Positions 8,569-15,020 of a DNA stretch of 64,000 nt are shown piece by piece; within the stretch, counting starts at the first letter, position 1, and each line of letters opens with the position of its first letter. The position numbers and the translations under genes were made by a program. This stretch comes from Lacrimispora amygdalina (GTDB taxonomy: Bacteria; Bacillota; Clostridia; Lachnospirales; Lachnospiraceae). The notes below the pieces were generated by a model. The model was not told the origin of the DNA and searched no databases. It saw nothing but the letters and a program-made list of their open reading frames with translations. Location: positions 1-64,000 of the forward strand of contig NZ_QOHO01000045.1 in the NCBI RefSeq assembly GCF_003432035.1, in the 5' to 3' direction.

Positions 8569-10991
8569 TGAAGCATGAGGATATCATTCGAAAAATGACT
8601 ATGGAAGAAAAGGCGGCCTTTTTAAGCGGAAAGAACGTCTGGCAGTCCAGGAATATCGACCGGCTGGGGATTGCTTCCATATTTTGCGCGGATGGTCCCC
8701 ATGGAGTCCGTAAACAGGCCGGTGCAGGGGATCATTTAGGACTCAATGCGTCTCTGCCGGCTACCTGCTTTCCCACGGCTGCGGCCGTGGCGAACAGCTG
8801 GGATGAGAATCTTGCAGAGGAAATCGGAAAGGCCCTGGGAGAAGAGGCTTCCAGCCAGGAAGTAAATGTTTTGCTGGGACCGGGACTTAATATCAAACGA
8901 AGTCCTCTCTGCGGAAGGAATTTTGAATATTTTTCAGAAGATCCTCTTTTGTCCGGAAAGATGGCGGCGGCCTATATAAGGGGAATCCAGAGCCAGGGAG
9001 TCTATGCCTGCCCGAAACATTTCGCAGTCAACAGCCAGGAACGGCTCCGGATGTCGGTTGATTCCATTCTCGATGAACGGACACTCAGGGAGATCTATCT
9101 GGAAGGCTTTGAAATTGCAGTAAAAGAGGGCGGCGCAAAATCCATTATGACCAGCTACAATGCGGTAAATGGGGTTTATGCCAATGAAAACAAGCATCTT
9201 CTGAAGGATATTCTTCGCGGTGACTGGAAGTTTGACGGAATTGTCATCACAGACTGGGGCGGTTCCAATAGTCATGTGGAAGGCGTTGCTGCAGGATCTG
9301 ATTTAGAGATGCCGGCGCCGGGACTGGGTTCTGCAAGGGAATTAATAGCGGCAGTGGAAAATGGCACGCTCACCATGGAGGAACTGGATGCCTGTGTGGA
9401 TGACTTATTAGATGCTGTACTGAGTCTTACAGCTGCTCAAAAGAGCGGAAAAAAATCCTTTGACTTACAGGCACATCATGAACTGGCCCGGAAAGCATCT
9501 CTGGAGAGCATTGTTCTGCTTAAAAATGAAGATGGGCTGCTTCCCCTGGATTCCGGCTGTAAAGTCGCGGTAATCGGAGATTTTGCATTTACCCCCCGTT
9601 ATCAGGGGGCAGGATCTTCCATTGTAAATCCTCTGTCCCTGGAGACGATTGAGTCGGTTATACAGAGTGCCGACTTAAACCTGGTGGGATGTTCCAAAGG
9701 GTATCAGAGAAATGGAAAAGAAGACGAAACGCTTAAAAAAGAGGCTCTTGAACTGGCTGCAAAAGCCGATGCAGTTCTTTACTGCTTCGGGCTTGACGAA
9801 CTGAGTGAATCAGAGGGGCAGGACCGGACCCATCTGGAAATACCAGGCAGCCAGATCAGTCTGCTGAAAGCTCTGGCCAAAGTAAATCCCAATATTGTGG
9901 GAATTTTAAGTGCCGGCTCTGTCATTGAACTTCCGTGGCAGTCCTGCTGCAAATCCATTCTTCATGGTTACTTAGGAGGCCAGGCAGGTGCGGGGGCCAT
10001 GGTACGGGTGATAACCGGCGAGGTCAATCCCTCCGGCCGCTTAGCCGAGAGTTATCCCGTAAAGCTTGGGGATACCCCGGCATATCATTATTTTCCGGGA
10101 AAAGAACGCTGCGCAGAATACAGGGAAGGGCTCTTCGTGGGATACCGGTATTACGACACGGCAGGAATTCCCGTCTGTTATCCTTTCGGTTTTGGATTGT
10201 CTTACACAACATTTGTGTATTCCGATCTGCAGTTATCCGAAAGCGGTGTGCGTTTTACGATTACCAACAAGGGGGACCGGGATGGAAAAGAGGTGGCCCA
10301 GCTCTATGTGGGCGGACCCAGAGAAAGAATTTTCCGTCCGGTTAAAGAATTGAAAGGCTTTGCAAAGGTTTATTTAAAAGCGGGGGAGAGTAAGACCGTG
10401 GAGATCCCCTTTGACGATAAGACTTTTCGGTACTGGAATGTGGCGACGAACCGCTTTGAAGTGGAAAAGGGAGATTATACCATATACATTGGAGCCAGTG
10501 TAAAAGATTTAAGATTAAGAACAACTTTTGCACTTGAAGGTACCACGAATATACTGCCTTACACACCGGAAAAAATGAAATCCTATTATACGGGTTTTAT
10601 CACCGATGTATCCGCTGAAGAATTTGAAGCGCTGCTGGGACACCCCATTCCCGACGGAAAATGGAGCGGGGAGCTGGGAATTAACGATGCATTCTGCCAG
10701 ATGTACTATGCAAAGAGCAGGCTGGCAAGGCTGGTCTATGGCATCCTGACAGGTTTGAAAAACAAAAGTGAAGCAAAAGGAAAACCGGATTTAAACCTTC
10801 TTTTTATTTACAGCATGCCGTTTCGGGGAATTGCCAAAATGACAAATGGAGTTGTCAGCATGGAAATGGCAGAAGGAATGGTTTTGGCCGTTAACGGACA
10901 TTTCCTGAAAGGAATGAAAAAGGTGATAGGGGGCTTTTTTTCCAATGCAAAAGCGAACAGGACTTATGAAAAAAAACTATCCGGGAAATAG
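8568..10991 (+). CDS. GH3 beta-glucosidase-type enzyme, conventional order
   Basis: An 807-residue soluble GH3 protein in the usual order: the TIM barrel first (ADGPHGVRK; CPKHFAVNSQE; nucleophile D229 in VITDWGG), then the C-terminal sandwich (ESIVLLKNEDGLLPL; GAGSS) and a fibronectin-III-like domain (YPFGFGLSYTTF). An extra tail of about 130 residues follows that I do not recognise. No signal peptide is seen, so it is likely cytoplasmic. Its ATG overlaps the last base of the preceding stop (TAATG), so the swapped and normal GH3 enzymes are translated together. By family it releases glucose or a related sugar from beta-linked glycosides. Confidence 0.92.
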   Translation: MKHEDIIRKMTMEEKAAFLSGKNVWQSRNIDRLGIASIFCADGPHGVRKQAGAGDHLGLNASLPATCFPTAAAVANSWDENLAEEIGKALGEEASSQEVNVLLGPGLNIKRSPLCGRNFEYFSEDPLLSGKMAAAYIRGIQSQGVYACPKHFAVNSQERLRMSVDSILDERTLREIYLEGFEIAVKEGGAKSIMTSYNAVNGVYANENKHLLKDILRGDWKFDGIVITDWGGSNSHVEGVAAGSDLEMPAPGLGSARELIAAVENGTLTMEELDACVDDLLDAVLSLTAAQKSGKKSFDLQAHHELARKASLESIVLLKNEDGLLPLDSGCKVAVIGDFAFTPRYQGAGSSIVNPLSLETIESVIQSADLNLVGCSKGYQRNGKEDETLKKEALELAAKADAVLYCFGLDELSESEGQDRTHLEIPGSQISLLKALAKVNPNIVGILSAGSVIELPWQSCCKSILHGYLGGQAGAGAMVRVITGEVNPSGRLAESYPVKLGDTPAYHYFPGKERCAEYREGLFVGYRYYDTAGIPVCYPFGFGLSYTTFVYSDLQLSESGVRFTITNKGDRDGKEVAQLYVGGPRERIFRPVKELKGFAKVYLKAGESKTVEIPFDDKTFRYWNVATNRFEVEKGDYTIYIGASVKDLRLRTTFALEGTTNILPYTPEKMKSYYTGFITDVSAEEFEALLGHPIPDGKWSGELGINDAFCQMYYAKSRLARLVYGILTGLKNKSEAKGKPDLNLLFIYSMPFRGIAKMTNGVVSMEMAEGMVLAVNGHFLKGMKKVIGGFFSNAKANRTYEKKLSGK

Positions 10992-11005
10992 ATTGGAGTG
11001 ATGGA

Positions 11006-11599
11006 ATGCTGGCAGGTTTGAAAAAGGGATGGAAGTCGTTTAACGGCAAACATCCTGCAATGGCGCAATTTATAATATTTTTTATCGTATCCAACGGAGT
11101 AACGCTTCTGCAGATGGTTTTAATGCCGGTTTTCCGGAATGTGTTTGAAATGACCGCTCTTGCAGACACGAATTTCCAGATCGGACACATCGGCTCCAAT
11201 CTGGATGGCTCTCCGTATTATATTTTTAATTATGCAGCAGGAACGCTTTCAGATGGGGGAGGCGGAGGACTTGCTTATTTTCTGGCAGTGGAGATTACCA
11301 TGGCCATTGCGCAGGTAATTAATTTCTTCCTCCAGAGGAATGTGACATTTAAAGCCAGTAACAGTGCTCTTAAGGCTGCCATGTGGTATGTGATTGCCTA
11401 CGTGATTATTACCATCGGTGCAGCCGCTTTACAGGGACTTTATAAGGCACCGGTCTATGATCTGTTTATGAACAGGCTCAATCTGGGAAGAGGCGGAGAG
11501 ACGATGGCAGATGTGATTACCATGCTGATTAATTCGGCTGTCTCATTCTGGGTATTTTTCCCCATCTTCCGGGTTATTTTTAAAAACAAGGAAGCTTAA
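11006..11599 (+). CDS. GtrA-like membrane protein
   Basis: A 197-residue protein with four hydrophobic segments (about 21-42, 88-112, 125-147 and 170-193). The segment INFFLQRNVTFKA at the end of the second resembles the conserved NFxxxRxxTF of GtrA-like proteins, which are thought to flip or carry lipid-linked sugars. A long hydrophilic loop with a run of five Gly lies between segments one and two. It lies 14 bases after the second GH3 gene and before a terminator, so it is the last gene of the GH3 operon. A role in handling a membrane-linked sugar substrate is inference. Confidence 0.62.
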   Translation: MLAGLKKGWKSFNGKHPAMAQFIIFFIVSNGVTLLQMVLMPVFRNVFEMTALADTNFQIGHIGSNLDGSPYYIFNYAAGTLSDGGGGGLAYFLAVEITMAIAQVINFFLQRNVTFKASNSALKAAMWYVIAYVIITIGAAALQGLYKAPVYDLFMNRLNLGRGGETMADVITMLINSAVSFWVFFPIFRVIFKNKEA

Positions 11600-11615
11600 A
11601 GAAGCAGTTAAAATG

Positions 11616-11648
11616 AGCGGAGGTCCGGTTGTATGGACTTCCGCTTTT
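11616..11648 (+). terminator. terminator of the GH3 operon
   Basis: AGCGGAGGTCC pairs with GGACTTCCGCT (one G-T pair) around an eight-base loop and is followed by four T. Confidence 0.8.
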
Positions 11649-11736
11649 CACATGGAAAAAATAAAACAGACACAAATGAAGGGCGGGCAGCATATTCTGA
11701 ATGGTACTATAAAAATATAAAAGGAAATTCAGAACC

Positions 11737-12396
11737 ATGCAAAGGGGGAAATACTACCGGGATTGTCTTCCGGTGAGGAAACCATATTGCTGTCTCAAAG
11801 CAGTCCGCAGAGAGAGAAACGCATTAAGAGCGTGGATCAAAGGCATACTCTGGTACAAACAGGCGCTGAAGCGGGAACCCTTCATCACAGCAAAAGTAAA
11901 GAGCGTGGCAGAACAGACTGATGTGGAGATGGCCGGCACCGAATACCGGATTAAGACAGTCAGCTCTTATTTAAAAAAATTCTGCAGGAAATACAGCCAG
12001 ACAGGGCAGGCATGTGAAATAAAAGATATCCTGCGCTACACCTATACGGTTTCTCCGGAGCTGCTTTCAGAAAAAGTAATAAAAATCATTGAGATCTATC
12101 AGGATTCAGGTTATAATACGGTTGAAATTAAGAATTACTGGCTTGACAGTCAAAATCCCTATAATGGAATCAATACCATTCTGCGTTCCCCCCAGGGGCA
12201 GGCATTTGAGCTCCAGTATCATACACCGGAGAGCTTCGGAGTAAAGAGCGGGAAGATACATGAACTGTATGAGAAACAGAGGCTGATAAGGGATGTGAGC
12301 AGCAGGGAATACATAGAACTGGGTGATCAGATGTTTGAACTTTCTGATTCTATGGAGATTCCAAAGGGTATAGAAAAGGTGAAATGTCATGGATGA
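11737..12396 (+). CDS. RelA/SpoT-fold nucleotidyltransferase-like protein
   Basis: A 219-residue protein whose middle (about 50-185) resembles the RelA/SpoT synthetase fold as found in toxin-type RSH proteins. Visible positions are YRIKTVSSYLKK (R71, K73), KDILRYT (D97, R100) in place of the usual DxxGxR, PYNGINT (Y142) in place of GYxSxH, and FELQYHT (E158, H162) in place of ExQxRT, then HELYEKQR. These match the pattern seen in polymorphic-toxin RelA/SpoT domains better than housekeeping RelP/RelQ. The first 48 residues are very basic and there is no signal peptide. It overlaps the next small gene by eight bases. It might make or transfer (p)ppGpp-like nucleotides, or be a toxin; activity is inference. 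Confidence 0.6.
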   Translation: MQRGKYYRDCLPVRKPYCCLKAVRRERNALRAWIKGILWYKQALKREPFITAKVKSVAEQTDVEMAGTEYRIKTVSSYLKKFCRKYSQTGQACEIKDILRYTYTVSPELLSEKVIKIIEIYQDSGYNTVEIKNYWLDSQNPYNGINTILRSPQGQAFELQYHTPESFGVKSGKIHELYEKQRLIRDVSSREYIELGDQMFELSDSMEIPKGIEKVKCHG

Positions 12397-12598
12397 GATC
12401 AGGTTTCTTAAATTAACCGATTATGAAAACAAAGGGACTGTGATTAAGCAGGCAGGAAGGCAGTTCTTTGGCTATGAAAACGGAGAATGGGTGAGGCGGG
12501 GACTGTCGCTGGGATATTTTTATCCCGATGCTCCGGAATTTGAATGCTATGAAGTGATTACCGAAACAGAGGCGAAGCGGCTTTTGAATGAAAAATGA
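12389..12598 (+). CDS. 69-residue partner of the RelA/SpoT-like protein
   Basis: A small acidic protein (many Glu/Asp, aromatic FFGYENGEW and GYFYP segments) that I do not recognise. Its ATG lies inside the end of the RelA/SpoT-like gene, giving tight translational coupling, and a terminator follows at once, so the two form a closed two-gene unit. Size, acidity and coupling would suit an antitoxin or immunity protein, but in most toxin-antitoxin pairs the antitoxin comes first; here it is second. This role is inference only. Confidence 0.55.
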   Translation: MDEIRFLKLTDYENKGTVIKQAGRQFFGYENGEWVRRGLSLGYFYPDAPEFECYEVITETEAKRLLNEK

Positions 12599-12600
12599 GA

Positions 12601-12631
12601 GGATGTATTCCCATAAGAAATACATCCTTTT
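12601..12631 (+). terminator. terminator
   Basis: GGATGTATT (12601-12609) pairs perfectly with AATACATCC (12619-12627) around a nine-base loop, followed by TTTTATTT. It separates the two-gene unit from the SOS operon. Confidence 0.88.
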
Positions 12632-12646
12632 ATTTCCACTATTAAT

Positions 12647-12660
12647 CGAACATACATTCG
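12647..12660. promoter_or_regulatory. LexA (SOS) box
   Basis: CGAACATACATTCG fits the Gram-positive LexA consensus CGAACRNRYGTTYG at 13 of 14 positions (A instead of G at position 10). It lies 27 bases before the Y-family polymerase start, where a bound repressor would cover the promoter. The gene content downstream (lesion-bypass polymerase, SRAP) agrees with SOS control. Confidence 0.85.
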
Positions 12661-12686
12661 GTTATCATATACTCAGAGGTGAGCAT

Positions 12687-13967
12687 ATGAATCGGGTTAT
12701 TTTTCATATTGATGTAAATTCTGCGTTTTTAAGCTGGGAAGCGGTCTACCGGCTGAAGCATCTTTCCGGGAATCTGGACCTGCGGCTGGTGCCTTCCGCA
12801 GTGGGGGGAGATGTTACCATGCGTCATGGCATCATTCTGGCAAAGAGCATCCCGGCAAAGAAGTATGGCATTCACACAGGACAGTCTGTTACGGAGGCGC
12901 TGCAGAAATGTCCCGGGCTTTTACTGGTTCCGCCTAATTATAATTTGTACCAGCGGTCTTCCGATGCTTTTATCCGCATTCTGAAGGAGTATTCTCCCAC
13001 AGTGGAACAGTATTCCATTGATGAGGCATACATGGATATGACGGGGATGGAGGCGCTTTTTGGGGAACCCGGGGACGCCGCTCTGGAAATCGGAAAGAGA
13101 ATCAGGGAGGAACTGGGATTTACCGTTAATATCGGTATTGCGGATAATAAGGTTTTAGCGAAGATGGCATCGGATTTTAAAAAGCCGGACCGGGTTCATA
13201 CGCTTTGGACCGGGGAAATCCGGGAAAAGCTGTGGCCTTTGCCGGTCAGTGACCTGTTTTTTGTAGGCAGGGCTACATTCCGAAAGCTTGGCCAGCTTGG
13301 GATAAAGACCATCGGAGATCTGGCAGGAACCGATCCTGGCCTGGTAAAAAGCCATTTCGGCAAAATGGGAGAGGTGATCTGGGGATTTGCCCACGGACTG
13401 GATTTTTCAGCGGTAGAACCGGTGCCGCCGCCCAATAAAGGATATGGAAACAGTACTACCATTGCCTTTGATGTAACGGAGAGGGAACATGCCCATCTGG
13501 TGCTTTTATCCCTTGCCGAGACACTGGCAGCAAGACTGCGGTCCGATAAAGTCCGTGCCGGAGTTCTGTCTGTGGGAATCAAAGACTGGGATTTTCATTA
13601 TTACAGCCATCAGGCCCCTCTTTCTTCGCCTACCAATATAACCGAAGAGATTTTTAAGACAGCGTGCCGGGTATTCGATGAGGCCTGGGATAAATTGCCG
13701 GTCCGCCATCTTGGTATCCACACGAGTCAGATCACTAAGGGGAGTGAAAGGCAGCTTGGCCTGTTTGATACAGGGGACTATGAGCGGCTGGAACGCCTTG
13801 ACCGGACCGTGGATGAGATCAGAAAGCGGTTTGGCAATGATTCCATTATAAGAGCCTCGTTCTTAACATCACCCCAGAACGGACCTGCCTGGTGTCTGGA
13901 CCATATGGGAGGGGGAATCAGCAGGGAGAAAAGGACCGTGGATTACAGCAGGCAGACTATTTTATAA
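12687..13967 (+). CDS. dinB: Y-family DNA polymerase (Pol IV / ImpB-MucB-SamB type)
   Basis: A 426-residue translesion polymerase. The catalytic acidic residues are seen as D9 in FHIDVNSAF and D112-E113 in YSIDEAYMD. The palm is followed by thumb (helix-hairpin-helix around FRKLGQLGIKTIGDLA) and a C-terminal little-finger domain. The start is ATG 12687 after AGAGGTGAG; an upstream in-frame ATG at 12588 would cross the terminator and the LexA box and is rejected. The protein lacks an obvious sliding-clamp motif beyond the C-terminal QLGLF segment (QxxLF-like), which may serve as one. It heads a three-gene SOS operon. Confidence 0.93.
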   Translation: MNRVIFHIDVNSAFLSWEAVYRLKHLSGNLDLRLVPSAVGGDVTMRHGIILAKSIPAKKYGIHTGQSVTEALQKCPGLLLVPPNYNLYQRSSDAFIRILKEYSPTVEQYSIDEAYMDMTGMEALFGEPGDAALEIGKRIREELGFTVNIGIADNKVLAKMASDFKKPDRVHTLWTGEIREKLWPLPVSDLFFVGRATFRKLGQLGIKTIGDLAGTDPGLVKSHFGKMGEVIWGFAHGLDFSAVEPVPPPNKGYGNSTTIAFDVTEREHAHLVLLSLAETLAARLRSDKVRAGVLSVGIKDWDFHYYSHQAPLSSPTNITEEIFKTACRVFDEAWDKLPVRHLGIHTSQITKGSERQLGLFDTGDYERLERLDRTVDEIRKRFGNDSIIRASFLTSPQNGPAWCLDHMGGGISREKRTVDYSRQTIL

Positions 13968-13985
13968 AAACAGGAAGTGAGAAGG

Positions 13986-14303
13986 ATGTCCTCTTTTGGA
14001 ATCGGAATCAATGCAGAGGCGATTGACAGCGGAGAATTAAAAGGTAAAATGTATCATATAGCGTGTAAGGCGTGGTTTACGGCCAGCTGTAATTTAAGGC
14101 CCTTAAGCTTTAAGTTTGAGGGCGATGACGGAGAAATCCGGACTGTGAGAGAGATTACGGTAAAGCATAGTGAGAATAAAAATTATTCGGGAATTCCCTC
14201 AAAAGAATATGCATGCGAAGCCATAATCGGAGGAATACGCCATGAATTTAAGCTGATATTTTACATGGAAGCCTGTAAATGGGTTATGATATTACCAAAA
14301 TAA
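13986..14303 (+). CDS. unknown SOS-operon protein
   Basis: A 105-residue soluble protein between the Y-family polymerase and the SRAP peptidase. I recognise no domain. It reads as mixed strand and helix, with conserved-looking aromatic and Cys residues (KAWFTASCNLRPLSFKFEGDD, then KEYACEAIIGG). ATG 13986 is preferred over GTG 13977, since AGGAAGTGAG is then spaced about seven bases away. Gaps to its neighbours are short (18 and 23 bases), so it is in the same LexA-controlled transcript. Context suggests an accessory to damage tolerance; that is inference. Confidence 0.65.
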   Translation: MSSFGIGINAEAIDSGELKGKMYHIACKAWFTASCNLRPLSFKFEGDDGEIRTVREITVKHSENKNYSGIPSKEYACEAIIGGIRHEFKLIFYMEACKWVMILPK

Positions 14304-14326
14304 AAGCGAAGGGAAGGGAGTAAAGC

Positions 14327-14914
14327 GTGTGCGGAAGGTATTATGTGGATGATGAGACAGCACGGGAGATTGAAAAGCTGGTAAAGGAAATTGATCATAA
14401 AATAAACAGGGAGAGGCTTACAGGAGACGTTCATCCGGCTGATCAGGCCATGGTCCTTATAAACAGGGACTGCAAGGTAATGCCTGCCCTGCAGCGCTGG
14501 GGATTACCCGGCTTTCAGAAAAAAGGTGTGATCTTTAATGCCAGATCAGAAACAGTGCTTGAAAAGCCCATGTTCCGTGAAAGCATCCTGCGGCGCAGGG
14601 CAGTCATTCCCTGCAGCGGATTTTATGAATGGAGCAAAAACAGGGAGAAAGCAGCATTTTACCGGGAAGGTGCTCCCATCATGTTTCTGGCAGGTTTTTA
14701 CAATCATGGAGAGGAAGACCGGTTTGTCATTCTCACTACCAATGCCAATCCTTTTGTTGCGCCTGTCCATGACCGGATGCCGCTGATTCTGGAAAAGAGT
14801 GAGATCGAAGACTGGCTTTCCCATGAAGAAGCGTTCCGCAGTATGCTGGCGGAGAGGCAGATCCCTCTGAAACGGCGTCAGGAGTATGAACAGCAGGAAC
14901 TAAGGCTGTTCTAG
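14327..14914 (+). CDS. SOS response-associated peptidase (SRAP, HMCES/YedK family)
   Basis: A 195-residue SRAP protein. Family members crosslink covalently to abasic sites in single-stranded DNA through the N-terminal Cys left after removal of the initiator Met. All expected residues are visible: C2 (CGRYY), N71 in FNARSET, E101 in GFYEWS and H148 in PVHDRMP. The start is GTG at 14327, directly followed by TGC for C2, and preceded by AGGGAGT. Length is slightly under the E. coli YedK value. Third gene of the LexA-headed operon, which fits abasic site protection next to a bypass polymerase. Confidence 0.95.
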   Translation: MCGRYYVDDETAREIEKLVKEIDHKINRERLTGDVHPADQAMVLINRDCKVMPALQRWGLPGFQKKGVIFNARSETVLEKPMFRESILRRRAVIPCSGFYEWSKNREKAAFYREGAPIMFLAGFYNHGEEDRFVILTTNANPFVAPVHDRMPLILEKSEIEDWLSHEEAFRSMLAERQIPLKRRQEYEQQELRLF

Positions 14915-14991
14915 CTGCATAATTGAGATTTTATATCAAAAACATACAAAAAAACAGGAAACCAGCCGCCTGAATTCCATGAATTATATGA

Positions 14992-15020
14992 TTGCAAACG
15001 GAACCAGGCGGTGTTATAAT
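14992..15020 (+). promoter_or_regulatory. promoter of the marR-ABC operon
   Basis: TTGCAA (14992-14997) and TATAAT (15015-15020) with a 17-base spacer. Initiation would fall at about 15027, just before the palindrome that probably binds the MarR protein. Confidence 0.8.

What the first reader, a model, noticed from the sequence alone, without database searches (positions are those of the whole stretch)
11737..12598. RelA/SpoT-fold protein with a coupled small acidic partner: possible toxSAS-like or nucleotide-signalling module
The 219-residue protein keeps R71/K73, D97, Y142 and E158 in the order of an alarmone synthetase, but its motifs (DILRYT, PYNGINT, FELQYHT) are those seen in toxin-type RelA/SpoT domains. 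An overlapping 69-residue gene and a terminator make it a self-contained unit. This could be a toxin-immunity pair or a new class of small nucleotide pyrophosphokinase.
Basis: partly seen in the sequence, partly recalled or inferred. Interest (0 to 1): 0.68.

Follow-up and report, generated by a model that had tools for sequence, protein, structure and literature searches.

The report
Phage toxin-immunity pair captured by chromosome
A nucleotide-modifying enzyme that phages carry as a toxin fused to a capsid protein has, in one genus of anaerobic bacteria, lost its phage part and become a resident chromosomal gene, and many species have since lost its protective partner, so how the cell tolerates or uses the enzyme can now be tested.

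Summary
The two genes are real: a 219-residue synthetase (11737-12396) overlapped by a 69-residue gene (12389-12598). They are not an ordinary small alarmone synthetase. The closest relatives are toxin domains of MuF phage capsid proteins (the Apk2 type); the solved structure nearest to the model is the exported synthetase SaEAS. The small gene matches IapK-like small ORFs that follow those phage toxins. The genes of 24 of 25 genomes of the host genus (Lacrimispora, by named relatives) form one clade, placed among the phage toxins by the rootings tried, sit at one syntenic place, lack MuF, and in the window's subclade keep a MuF-linker remnant just upstream of the start codon. The immunity gene is intact or probably intact in 10 of 24, fused in frame in 3, truncated in 1 and gone in 10, while the synthetase keeps its catalytic residues and is under purifying selection (dN/dS 0.11-0.33 in 19 pairs). 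Best reading: a captured Apk2-IapK cassette turned into a resident cytosolic synthetase, IapK-restrained where IapK survives. The phage system is known; chromosomal fixation with repeated immunity loss is a new variant. Activity, nucleotide specificity and toxicity are untested.

The parts
11737..12396 (+). Apk2tox-like nucleotide 3'-pyrophosphokinase (SYNTH domain), 219 aa, without MuF domain or obvious signal peptide; syn signatures R100-Y101-T102, G144-x-N146, Y161-H162
   Evidence: XopAD C-terminal part E 1e-26; 8vx3 E 7e-10; phrog_7625 head morphogenesis E 2e-31
12389..12598 (+). IapK-like small immunity protein, 69 aa, overlapping the synthetase stop by 8 nt
   Evidence: (68-70% and 58-59% identity to phage small ORFs of L082 and L055)
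11663..11734 (+). Remnant of the MuF C-terminal linker (KTDTNEGRAAYSEWYYKNIKGNSE, 12 of 24 identical to a genus prophage MuF protein) in another frame than the synthetase, ending just before its start codon; now 5' leader and possible promoter/RBS
   Evidence: best hit of the upstream frames against 55 whole MuF parts, at the place just before the toxin domain; 0 of 150 shuffles reach it; 0 of 1000 with a profile chosen after the motif had been seen; conserved DNA block
12130..12132 (+). Codon of K132, basic in 41 of 42 phage rows and replaced by E in 8 of 24 chromosomal orthologues
12600..12628 (.). Inverted repeat (13 pairs) between the pair and dinB, possible bidirectional terminator
   Evidence: not above shuffle expectation by count

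Best explanation
The pair is a polymorphic-toxin cassette of the Apk2-IapK kind, captured from a MuF-carrying (pro)phage by an ancestor of most of the genus and cut free of its capsid domain. SHOWN BY SEQUENCE: the synthetase domain is homologous to, and groups with, phage MuF toxin domains; the small gene is homologous to phage small ORFs in the IapK position; a MuF-linker remnant lies upstream in the window's subclade; the locus is syntenic; the synthetase is under purifying selection with its catalytic residues kept. INFERRED: it transfers pyrophosphate from ATP to the 3'-OH of a purine nucleotide (most likely ATP/ADP, giving (p)ppApp; GTP/GDP not excluded) in the producing cell's own cytoplasm; the 69-residue protein, made by overlapping translation, binds the enzyme at its active site and restrains it. 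In 14 of 24 genomes the small gene is fused, truncated or lost while the synthetase stays, so the enzyme there has presumably been tamed (weaker, tightly regulated, or its product removed by an alarmone hydrolase of the genus) and kept as a resident alarmone synthetase rather than as a weapon.
For: Homology to MuF toxin C-termini: phages 37-39% identity in the 20 listed of 42 records, phrog_7625 E 2e-31, viral contigs up to 56% over residues 30-216, and 62% over a 98-residue part. Tree: 24 chromosomal rows are one side of a branch (100/99), nearest phage row L055 (90/95); also among phage rows in a quick tree with distant outgroup rows. Apk signatures RYT/GxN/YH (as given in PMC12226406) in 24 of 24. 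Structure: 8vx3 (SaEAS) Z 20.9, Tas1 6ox6_A Z 12.8. Small gene: 58-70% identity to phage small ORFs L055/L082; profile match to the V22/L025-type small proteins probability 82.8, E 9e-6; top second-look structure hit is the Tas1 immunity protein 6ox6_B, Z 4.5. MuF-linker remnant: 0 of 150 shuffles for the window and for L003 and L005, 1 of 150 for L011. Restricted and vertical: 24 of 25 genus genomes; in 295 genomes drawn from the order the only full-length hit outside the genus is a 584-aa MuF ORF (MuF by profile as L170); the same MarR gene lies downstream in 22 of 22 resolvable loci. Selection: dN/dS 0.11-0.33 in 19 chosen pairs. Immunity status.
Against: No activity, toxicity or binding was measured. 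The link to the experimentally studied pneumococcal IapK rests on a weak profile match and on position: BLASTP of the window protein against the V22 protein gave nothing, and the Tis1 structural match (Z 4.5) is tied with SH3-containing chains (Z 4.4). Nesting inside the phage toxins depends on the root: one search is midpoint-rooted, and the 12 outgroup rows do not form one group and several sit on very long branches. The MuF remnant is not significant in two other subclades (L012: 88 of 150, L018: 14 of 150; 182 and 131 of 1000), and a first profile of the whole linker did not find it in the window. K132 is E in 8 of 24, so some orthologues may have reduced or no activity. [quoted passage not shown] The highest dN/dS (up to 0.33) occurs in the subclade with fused or lost small gene; several pairs have saturated dS.
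Confidence: 0.7

Rival explanations
1. It still works as a chromosomal toxin-antitoxin or abortive-infection module: the synthetase kills or arrests the cell when the antitoxin is lost or a phage is sensed.
For: Two overlapping genes, toxin-type motifs; two of three Apk2 domains tested are bactericidal in E. coli (PMC12226406); small gene under strong selection where present (dN/dS 0.09-0.14 in 9 of 10 pairs of five sequences, one undefined).
Against: 14 of 24 loci have a fused, truncated or missing small gene with an intact synthetase; vertical, syntenic inheritance instead of patchy spread; no PADLOC match; no added sensor domain in the model.
Confidence: 0.17
2. It is a decaying prophage remnant with no present function, or a relic kept only because its small gene gives immunity against incoming MuF-Apk2 phages.
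For: MuF remnant upstream; repeated loss of the small gene; K132E in 8 of 24; 5 of 25 genus genomes carry a second homologue in a 566-584 aa ORF of MuF-toxin size, MuF confirmed by profile in two (L154, L155).
Against: Synthetase dN/dS 0.11-0.33 and no internal stop in 24 of 24; catalytic residues invariant; it is the immunity gene and not the toxin that is lost, the opposite of orphan immunity.
Confidence: 0.1
3. It is an exported effector (EAS) delivered to other cells.
For: Best structural and PDB sequence match is the exported SaEAS.
Against: The N-terminus MQRGKYYRDCLPVRKPYCC... shows no hydrophobic signal stretch by eye (no predictor run); no delivery domain found in Pfam or NCBIfam scans; neighbours are GtrA, dinB, SRAP, MarR and ABC genes (MarR and ABC named by eye from the translations).
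Confidence: 0.03

Closest known systems
Apk2-IapK-Aph1 of temperate phages (MuF polymorphic toxins; PMC12226406)
   Same: Synthetase domain with RYT/GxN/YH signatures; followed at once by a small immunity-type gene; phage relatives in Firmicutes
   Different: No MuF domain, no phage head genes around it, no adjacent Aph1; fixed in the chromosome; small gene fused, truncated or lost in 14 of 24 loci
SaEAS and the exported alarmone synthetases (PMC12691689; PDB 8vx3)
   Same: Closest solved fold (VIA Z 20.9, 190 aligned residues, 23% identity)
   Different: No visible signal peptide; has an immunity-type partner, which SaEAS lacks
Apk1/Tas1-Tis1 of a type VI secretion system (PDB 6ox6)
   Same: Synthetase fold (Z 12.8); the small protein's best second-look match is Tis1 (Z 4.5, tied with SH3 folds)
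   Different: No PAAR or secretion context
C-terminal domain of XopAD/skwp type III effectors
   Same: Domain homology, NCBIfam NF041399 E 1e-26 over residues 40-216
   Different: Not part of a large repeat protein; no secretion context
RelP/RelQ small alarmone synthetases
   Same: Overall SYNTH fold (best chains Z 12-13.5)
   Different: No Pfam RelA_SpoT match; Apk-type syn motifs; the genome has five other PF04607 places

Membership tests
Apk2 (MuF adenosine 3'-pyrophosphokinase toxin) | SYNTH domain with Apk signatures RYT, GxN, YH | tested here: met
   24 of 24 chromosomal rows; 42 of 42 phage rows have RYT, GxN and H162, with Y161 in 23 and F in 19; signatures as stated in PMC12226406
Apk2 (MuF adenosine 3'-pyrophosphokinase toxin) | N-terminal MuF domain in the same protein | tested here: not met
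   219-aa ORF without PF04233; own MuF profile finds nothing at E <= 1e-3 in the 16 genus loci L135-L149 and L151; only a linker remnant upstream
Apk2 (MuF adenosine 3'-pyrophosphokinase toxin) | Gene lies in a phage head cluster | tested here: not met
   Neighbours are GtrA, dinB, an orphan gene and SRAP by Pfam, then MarR- and ABC-like ORFs by eye
Apk2 (MuF adenosine 3'-pyrophosphokinase toxin) | Adjacent Aph1 (p)ppApp hydrolase | tested here: not met
   Next genes are dinB, an orphan and SRAP; HD hydrolases related to Aph1 occur elsewhere in 25 of 25 genus genomes, one of them Rel itself
Apk2 (MuF adenosine 3'-pyrophosphokinase toxin) | Makes (p)ppApp and is toxic | not testable with these tools
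   -
IapK/Tis1-type active-site-blocking immunity protein | Small gene directly after the synthetase gene | tested here: met
   8-nt overlap in the window; intact or probably intact in 10 of 24 orthologous loci
IapK/Tis1-type active-site-blocking immunity protein | Sequence or fold homology to a characterised member | tested here: inconclusive
   Clear homology to phage small ORFs, weak profile match to the V22 type, Tis1 Z 4.5 tied with SH3; V22 protein taken as IapK by position and host species, not by accession
IapK/Tis1-type active-site-blocking immunity protein | Binds and blocks the enzyme | not testable with these tools
   No complex was predicted
toxSAS toxin-antitoxin module | Bicistronic toxin with neutralising antitoxin | tested here: inconclusive
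   Layout met in the window, but the small gene is fused, truncated or lost in 14 of 24 orthologues; neutralisation not testable
RelP/RelQ small alarmone synthetase | Pfam RelA_SpoT (PF04607) match | tested here: not met
   No match up to E 1; the genome scan with PF04607 finds five other places but not this one
Exported alarmone synthetase | Signal peptide or export domain | tested here: inconclusive
   None seen by eye or in Pfam/NCBIfam scans; no signal-peptide predictor available

The most novel reading that the evidence does not exclude
A phage capsid-borne (p)ppApp toxin has been domesticated as a resident cytosolic alarmone synthetase of a whole bacterial genus: first kept with its inhibitor, then freed from it at least twice (once through in-frame fusion and stepwise erosion of the inhibitor), giving bacteria that make (p)ppApp for their own physiology with a former toxin.
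Probability: 0.33. Interest if true: 0.78.

Novelty: new variant of a known kind. Interest (0 to 1): 0.52.

Why it matters
[quoted passage not shown] Whether cells keep a toxin-type enzyme for themselves is, as far as I saw, open. Here one is inherited vertically, conserved and often without its inhibitor, in a genus with named isolates, so the question becomes testable by deletion and nucleotide profiling. The graded series (separate gene, in-frame fusion, truncated fusion, loss) is a natural record of how a cell may come to live with a toxin domain.

Tried and rejected
E130 as a chromosome-specific attenuating change: position 130 aligns in phmmer with the SaEAS lysine that I take to be K154, an ATP-binding residue in PMC12691689, and is E in 24 of 24 chromosomal rows; but 8 of 42 phage rows also have E, so I dropped it. 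K132 is the better candidate, and one genome (G011) breaks its link with immunity loss because it has E132 and an intact small gene.

Direct BLASTP of the small protein to the V22 small protein: nothing at E <= 100. Foldseek on the small protein: no hit at E <= 0.001. Rfam: none in 10500-15000. PADLOC: none.

MuF remnant: a profile of the whole linker found no remnant in the window, though it aligned one in L011. The profile was built around a motif I had already seen, so its shuffle count is favourable; one search repeats the test without choosing a motif (all frames of 240 upstream bases against 55 whole MuF parts; 6 loci, 150 shuffles each): 0, 0, 0, 1, 88 and 14 shuffles reach the real score for L001 (window), L005, L003, L011, L012 and L018. 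Related loci are not independent.

SOS link: a LexA-like box CGAACATACATTCG (12647-12660) precedes dinB, but 31 of 100 shuffles contain a match at the 2-mismatch setting, and dinB is not next to the synthetase in the other subclades read (L012, L015, L018, L024). Rejected as part of the module.

Aph1 in trans: HD proteins in open frames of 128-216 aa, and Rel, match the V22 Aph1-like protein in 25 of 25 genomes, but the window genome's stand-alone HD is nearer to small alarmone hydrolases (7qoc, E 2e-28) than to the solved (p)ppApp hydrolase 7smg (E 1.5e-6). A possible detoxifier, not shown.

Rows dropped: the viral scan kept 80 of 102 relatives and the genome scan 79 distinct loci of 98 relatives. 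For the residue table I gave 57 of 80 viral loci, and 36 remained after removing duplicates, short rows and rows with a stop in the read frame; plus 6 prophage rows. The dN/dS pairs are 19 chosen pairs, counted by a simple method, some with saturated dS. The trees are quick ones; one search lacks 5 viral rows and 14 of 24 chromosomal rows, and its outgroup is poor.

Full report
What is there. The window carries a 219-residue ORF (11737-12396) and an 8-nt overlapping 69-residue ORF (12389-12598). Pfam gives the larger protein no RelA_SpoT match up to E 1; NCBIfam matches its residues 40-216 to the C-terminal part of XopAD/skwp type III effectors (E 1e-26), PHROGs to the end of a phage head-morphogenesis family (phrog_7625, E 2e-31), and the PDB to the exported Streptomyces synthetase 8vx3 (E 7e-10). 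An AF2 model from 34 sequences is confident (pLDDT 90.1, pTM 0.81); Foldseek and VIA-align place it with 8vx3 (Z 20.9), then RelP/RelQ-type enzymes (best chains Z 12-13.5), Tas1 (12.8), CapRel (11.7) and FaRel2 (7.7).

Relatives. A tblastn of phage records finds 42 records, all under 60% identity; of the 20 listed, 15 are annotated as head morphogenesis or minor head proteins and 5 as hypothetical. Plasmid records give 56, among them minor capsid and XopAD annotations. A scan of viral contigs kept 80 of 102 relatives; the complete ORFs read are mostly 500-620 aa, and 78 of 80 loci have a small ORF of 55-90 aa starting within -48..+25 nt of the toxin stop, against 23 of 163 other long frames in the same loci. 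In 26 of 80 an HD-hydrolase motif follows within 900 nt. This is the layout of the published Apk2-IapK-Aph1 system (PMC12226406, whole text read in four parts): MuF toxin making (p)ppApp and no pppGpp in the domains tested, small inhibitor occluding the active site, hydrolase of the product. The exported synthetases are described in PMC12691689 (abstract, three sections and passages read); passages of PMC11699363 were seen.

The small gene. The window protein is 68-70% and 58-59% identical to the phage small ORFs of L082 and L055 and 35-39% to those in genus prophages. A profile of this type matches 18 of the 78 phage small ORFs at E <= 1e-3; 7 of these 18 are rows of the profile itself, and the other 60 are not matched. 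The match to the V22/L025 type is weak but positive (hhalign probability 82.8, E 9e-6, 55 columns); a prophage member hits the V22 family phrog_3514 at E 0.018; plain BLASTP finds nothing. The AF2 model (pLDDT 85.0, pTM 0.67) has the Tas1 immunity protein 6ox6_B as best second-look match (Z 4.5, rmsd 3.4, 60 aligned), tied with an SH3-containing chain (Z 4.4). I therefore call it IapK-like.

Distribution and descent. 24 of 25 genomes of the genus have the gene. In 295 genomes drawn from the order, 11 had a match at E <= 0.001: 4 in the genus, one full-length 584-aa ORF outside it (G037; the same contig is L170, MuF by profile), and six weak or broken hits. The 24 chromosomal rows are one side of a branch with 100/99 support, nearest phage row L055 (90/95), and lie among the phage rows under midpoint rooting. 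A quick tree with 12 distant homologues keeps them among the phage rows with L055, but the outgroup rows do not form one group and several sit on very long branches, so the root is not secure; the direction phage to chromosome rests more on the MuF remnant and on the narrow distribution. The same MarR gene lies downstream on the same strand within 0.2-4 kb in 22 of 22 loci where the contig allows it (G005 and G020 are broken by contig ends). G001, the one genome without the gene, has the dinB-orphan-SRAP-MarR-ABC order but no trace of the pair.

The remnant. Just upstream of the start codon, in another frame, the window encodes KTDTNEGRAAYSEWYYKNIKGNSE (11663-11734), 12 of 24 identical to the linker that precedes the toxin domain in a genus prophage MuF protein. 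In a search without a chosen motif (all frames of 240 upstream bases against 55 whole MuF parts) this is the best hit, and 0 of 150 shuffles reach it for the window, L005 and L003, 1 of 150 for L011, but 88 for L012 (whose best hit is nevertheless the same linker) and 14 for L018 (another place). A profile built after seeing the motif gives 0 of 1000 for the window and 1, 182 and 131 of 1000 for L011, L012 and L018; a whole-linker profile missed it in the window. So the gene most likely was cut out of a MuF toxin and the linker DNA became its leader. Three other short ORFs with linker remnants and a small downstream gene (L150, L157, L158) lie on separate branches of a quick tree, so capture may have happened more than once; each is a single genome.

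Fate of the pair. Status of the small gene at the chromosomal locus, 24 genomes: intact in 9 and split over two contigs but probably intact in 1 (G005); fused in frame to the synthetase without about its first 24 codons in 3 (G004, G016, G019); fused and truncated in 1 (G018); absent in 10 (ORF lists read for many of them; for G002, G006, G014 and G015 absence rests only on no match at E <= 0.1; G003 and G023 have a small gene only beside their prophage copies). On the tree these fall into two groups, implying at least two losses. Throughout, R71, K73, D97, R100, Y142, G144, N146, E158 and Q160 stay invariant in 24 of 24, and synthetase dN/dS is 0.11-0.33 in 19 chosen pairs, being 0.12-0.21 within the clade that wholly lacks the small gene (simple counting method); small-gene dN/dS is 0.09-0.14 in 9 of 10 pairs, one undefined. 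The first 38 residues vary more than the rest. K132, basic in 41 of 42 phage rows, is E in 8 of 24 chromosomal rows: the 7 genomes with fused, truncated or deleted small gene in the window's subclade, plus G011, which has an intact one. This could mean attenuation in that subclade, but it is a correlation of one or two events.

How it most likely works. The enzyme has the residues and fold to move pyrophosphate from ATP to a nucleotide 3'-OH, with the syn motifs that the Apk authors associate with adenosine acceptors; this is inference from family, and SaEAS, with RYT and GxN, uses both purines. It has no delivery domain that I could find and no visible signal peptide, so it presumably acts in the cell that makes it. 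The IapK-like protein, translated with overlap, would hold it in check; where that gene is gone, weaker activity, tight expression or a hydrolase must serve. The genome also has five PF04607 places, Rel and four shorter ones, so this is an additional, different synthetase.

What is known and what is new. Apk2, IapK and Aph1 are known; MuF toxins with RelA-like domains were reported in 2017 (PMC5576092, passages). Among the papers listed I saw none on a chromosomal, MuF-free form (searches, of which only the top 10-20 were listed), and none in the library holds both 'Lacrimispora' and 'alarmone'. Subscription papers are mostly not covered, and the 1,369-sequence survey in PMC12691689 may include such proteins without comment. 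Novelty is therefore a new variant of a known kind.

Noticed in passing
L163, L164, L173, L179: An IapK-like N-terminus and an Aph1-like HD domain appear, by eye, to be fused in one ORF (213-382 aa) after a synthetase domain: a single protein with both kinds of immunity.
   Followed up: no
L010 2342-3563 (G023): Transposase-like ORFs (IS110 type by eye) lie between the synthetase gene and dinB.
   Followed up: no
window 12647-12660: LexA-like palindrome before dinB; dinB, a 108-aa orphan (13977-14303) and SRAP (14327-14914) form an SOS-type trio that is also present in G001.
   Followed up: partly
L229 542-1084 (G000:C99): Stand-alone small alarmone hydrolase-like HD protein; each of 25 genus genomes has an HD match besides Rel.
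   Followed up: partly
L050-L054: Five genus genomes (G003, G005, G016, G022, G023) carry a second homologue in ORFs of 566-584 aa; MuF was confirmed by profile for two of them (L154, L155).
   Followed up: partly
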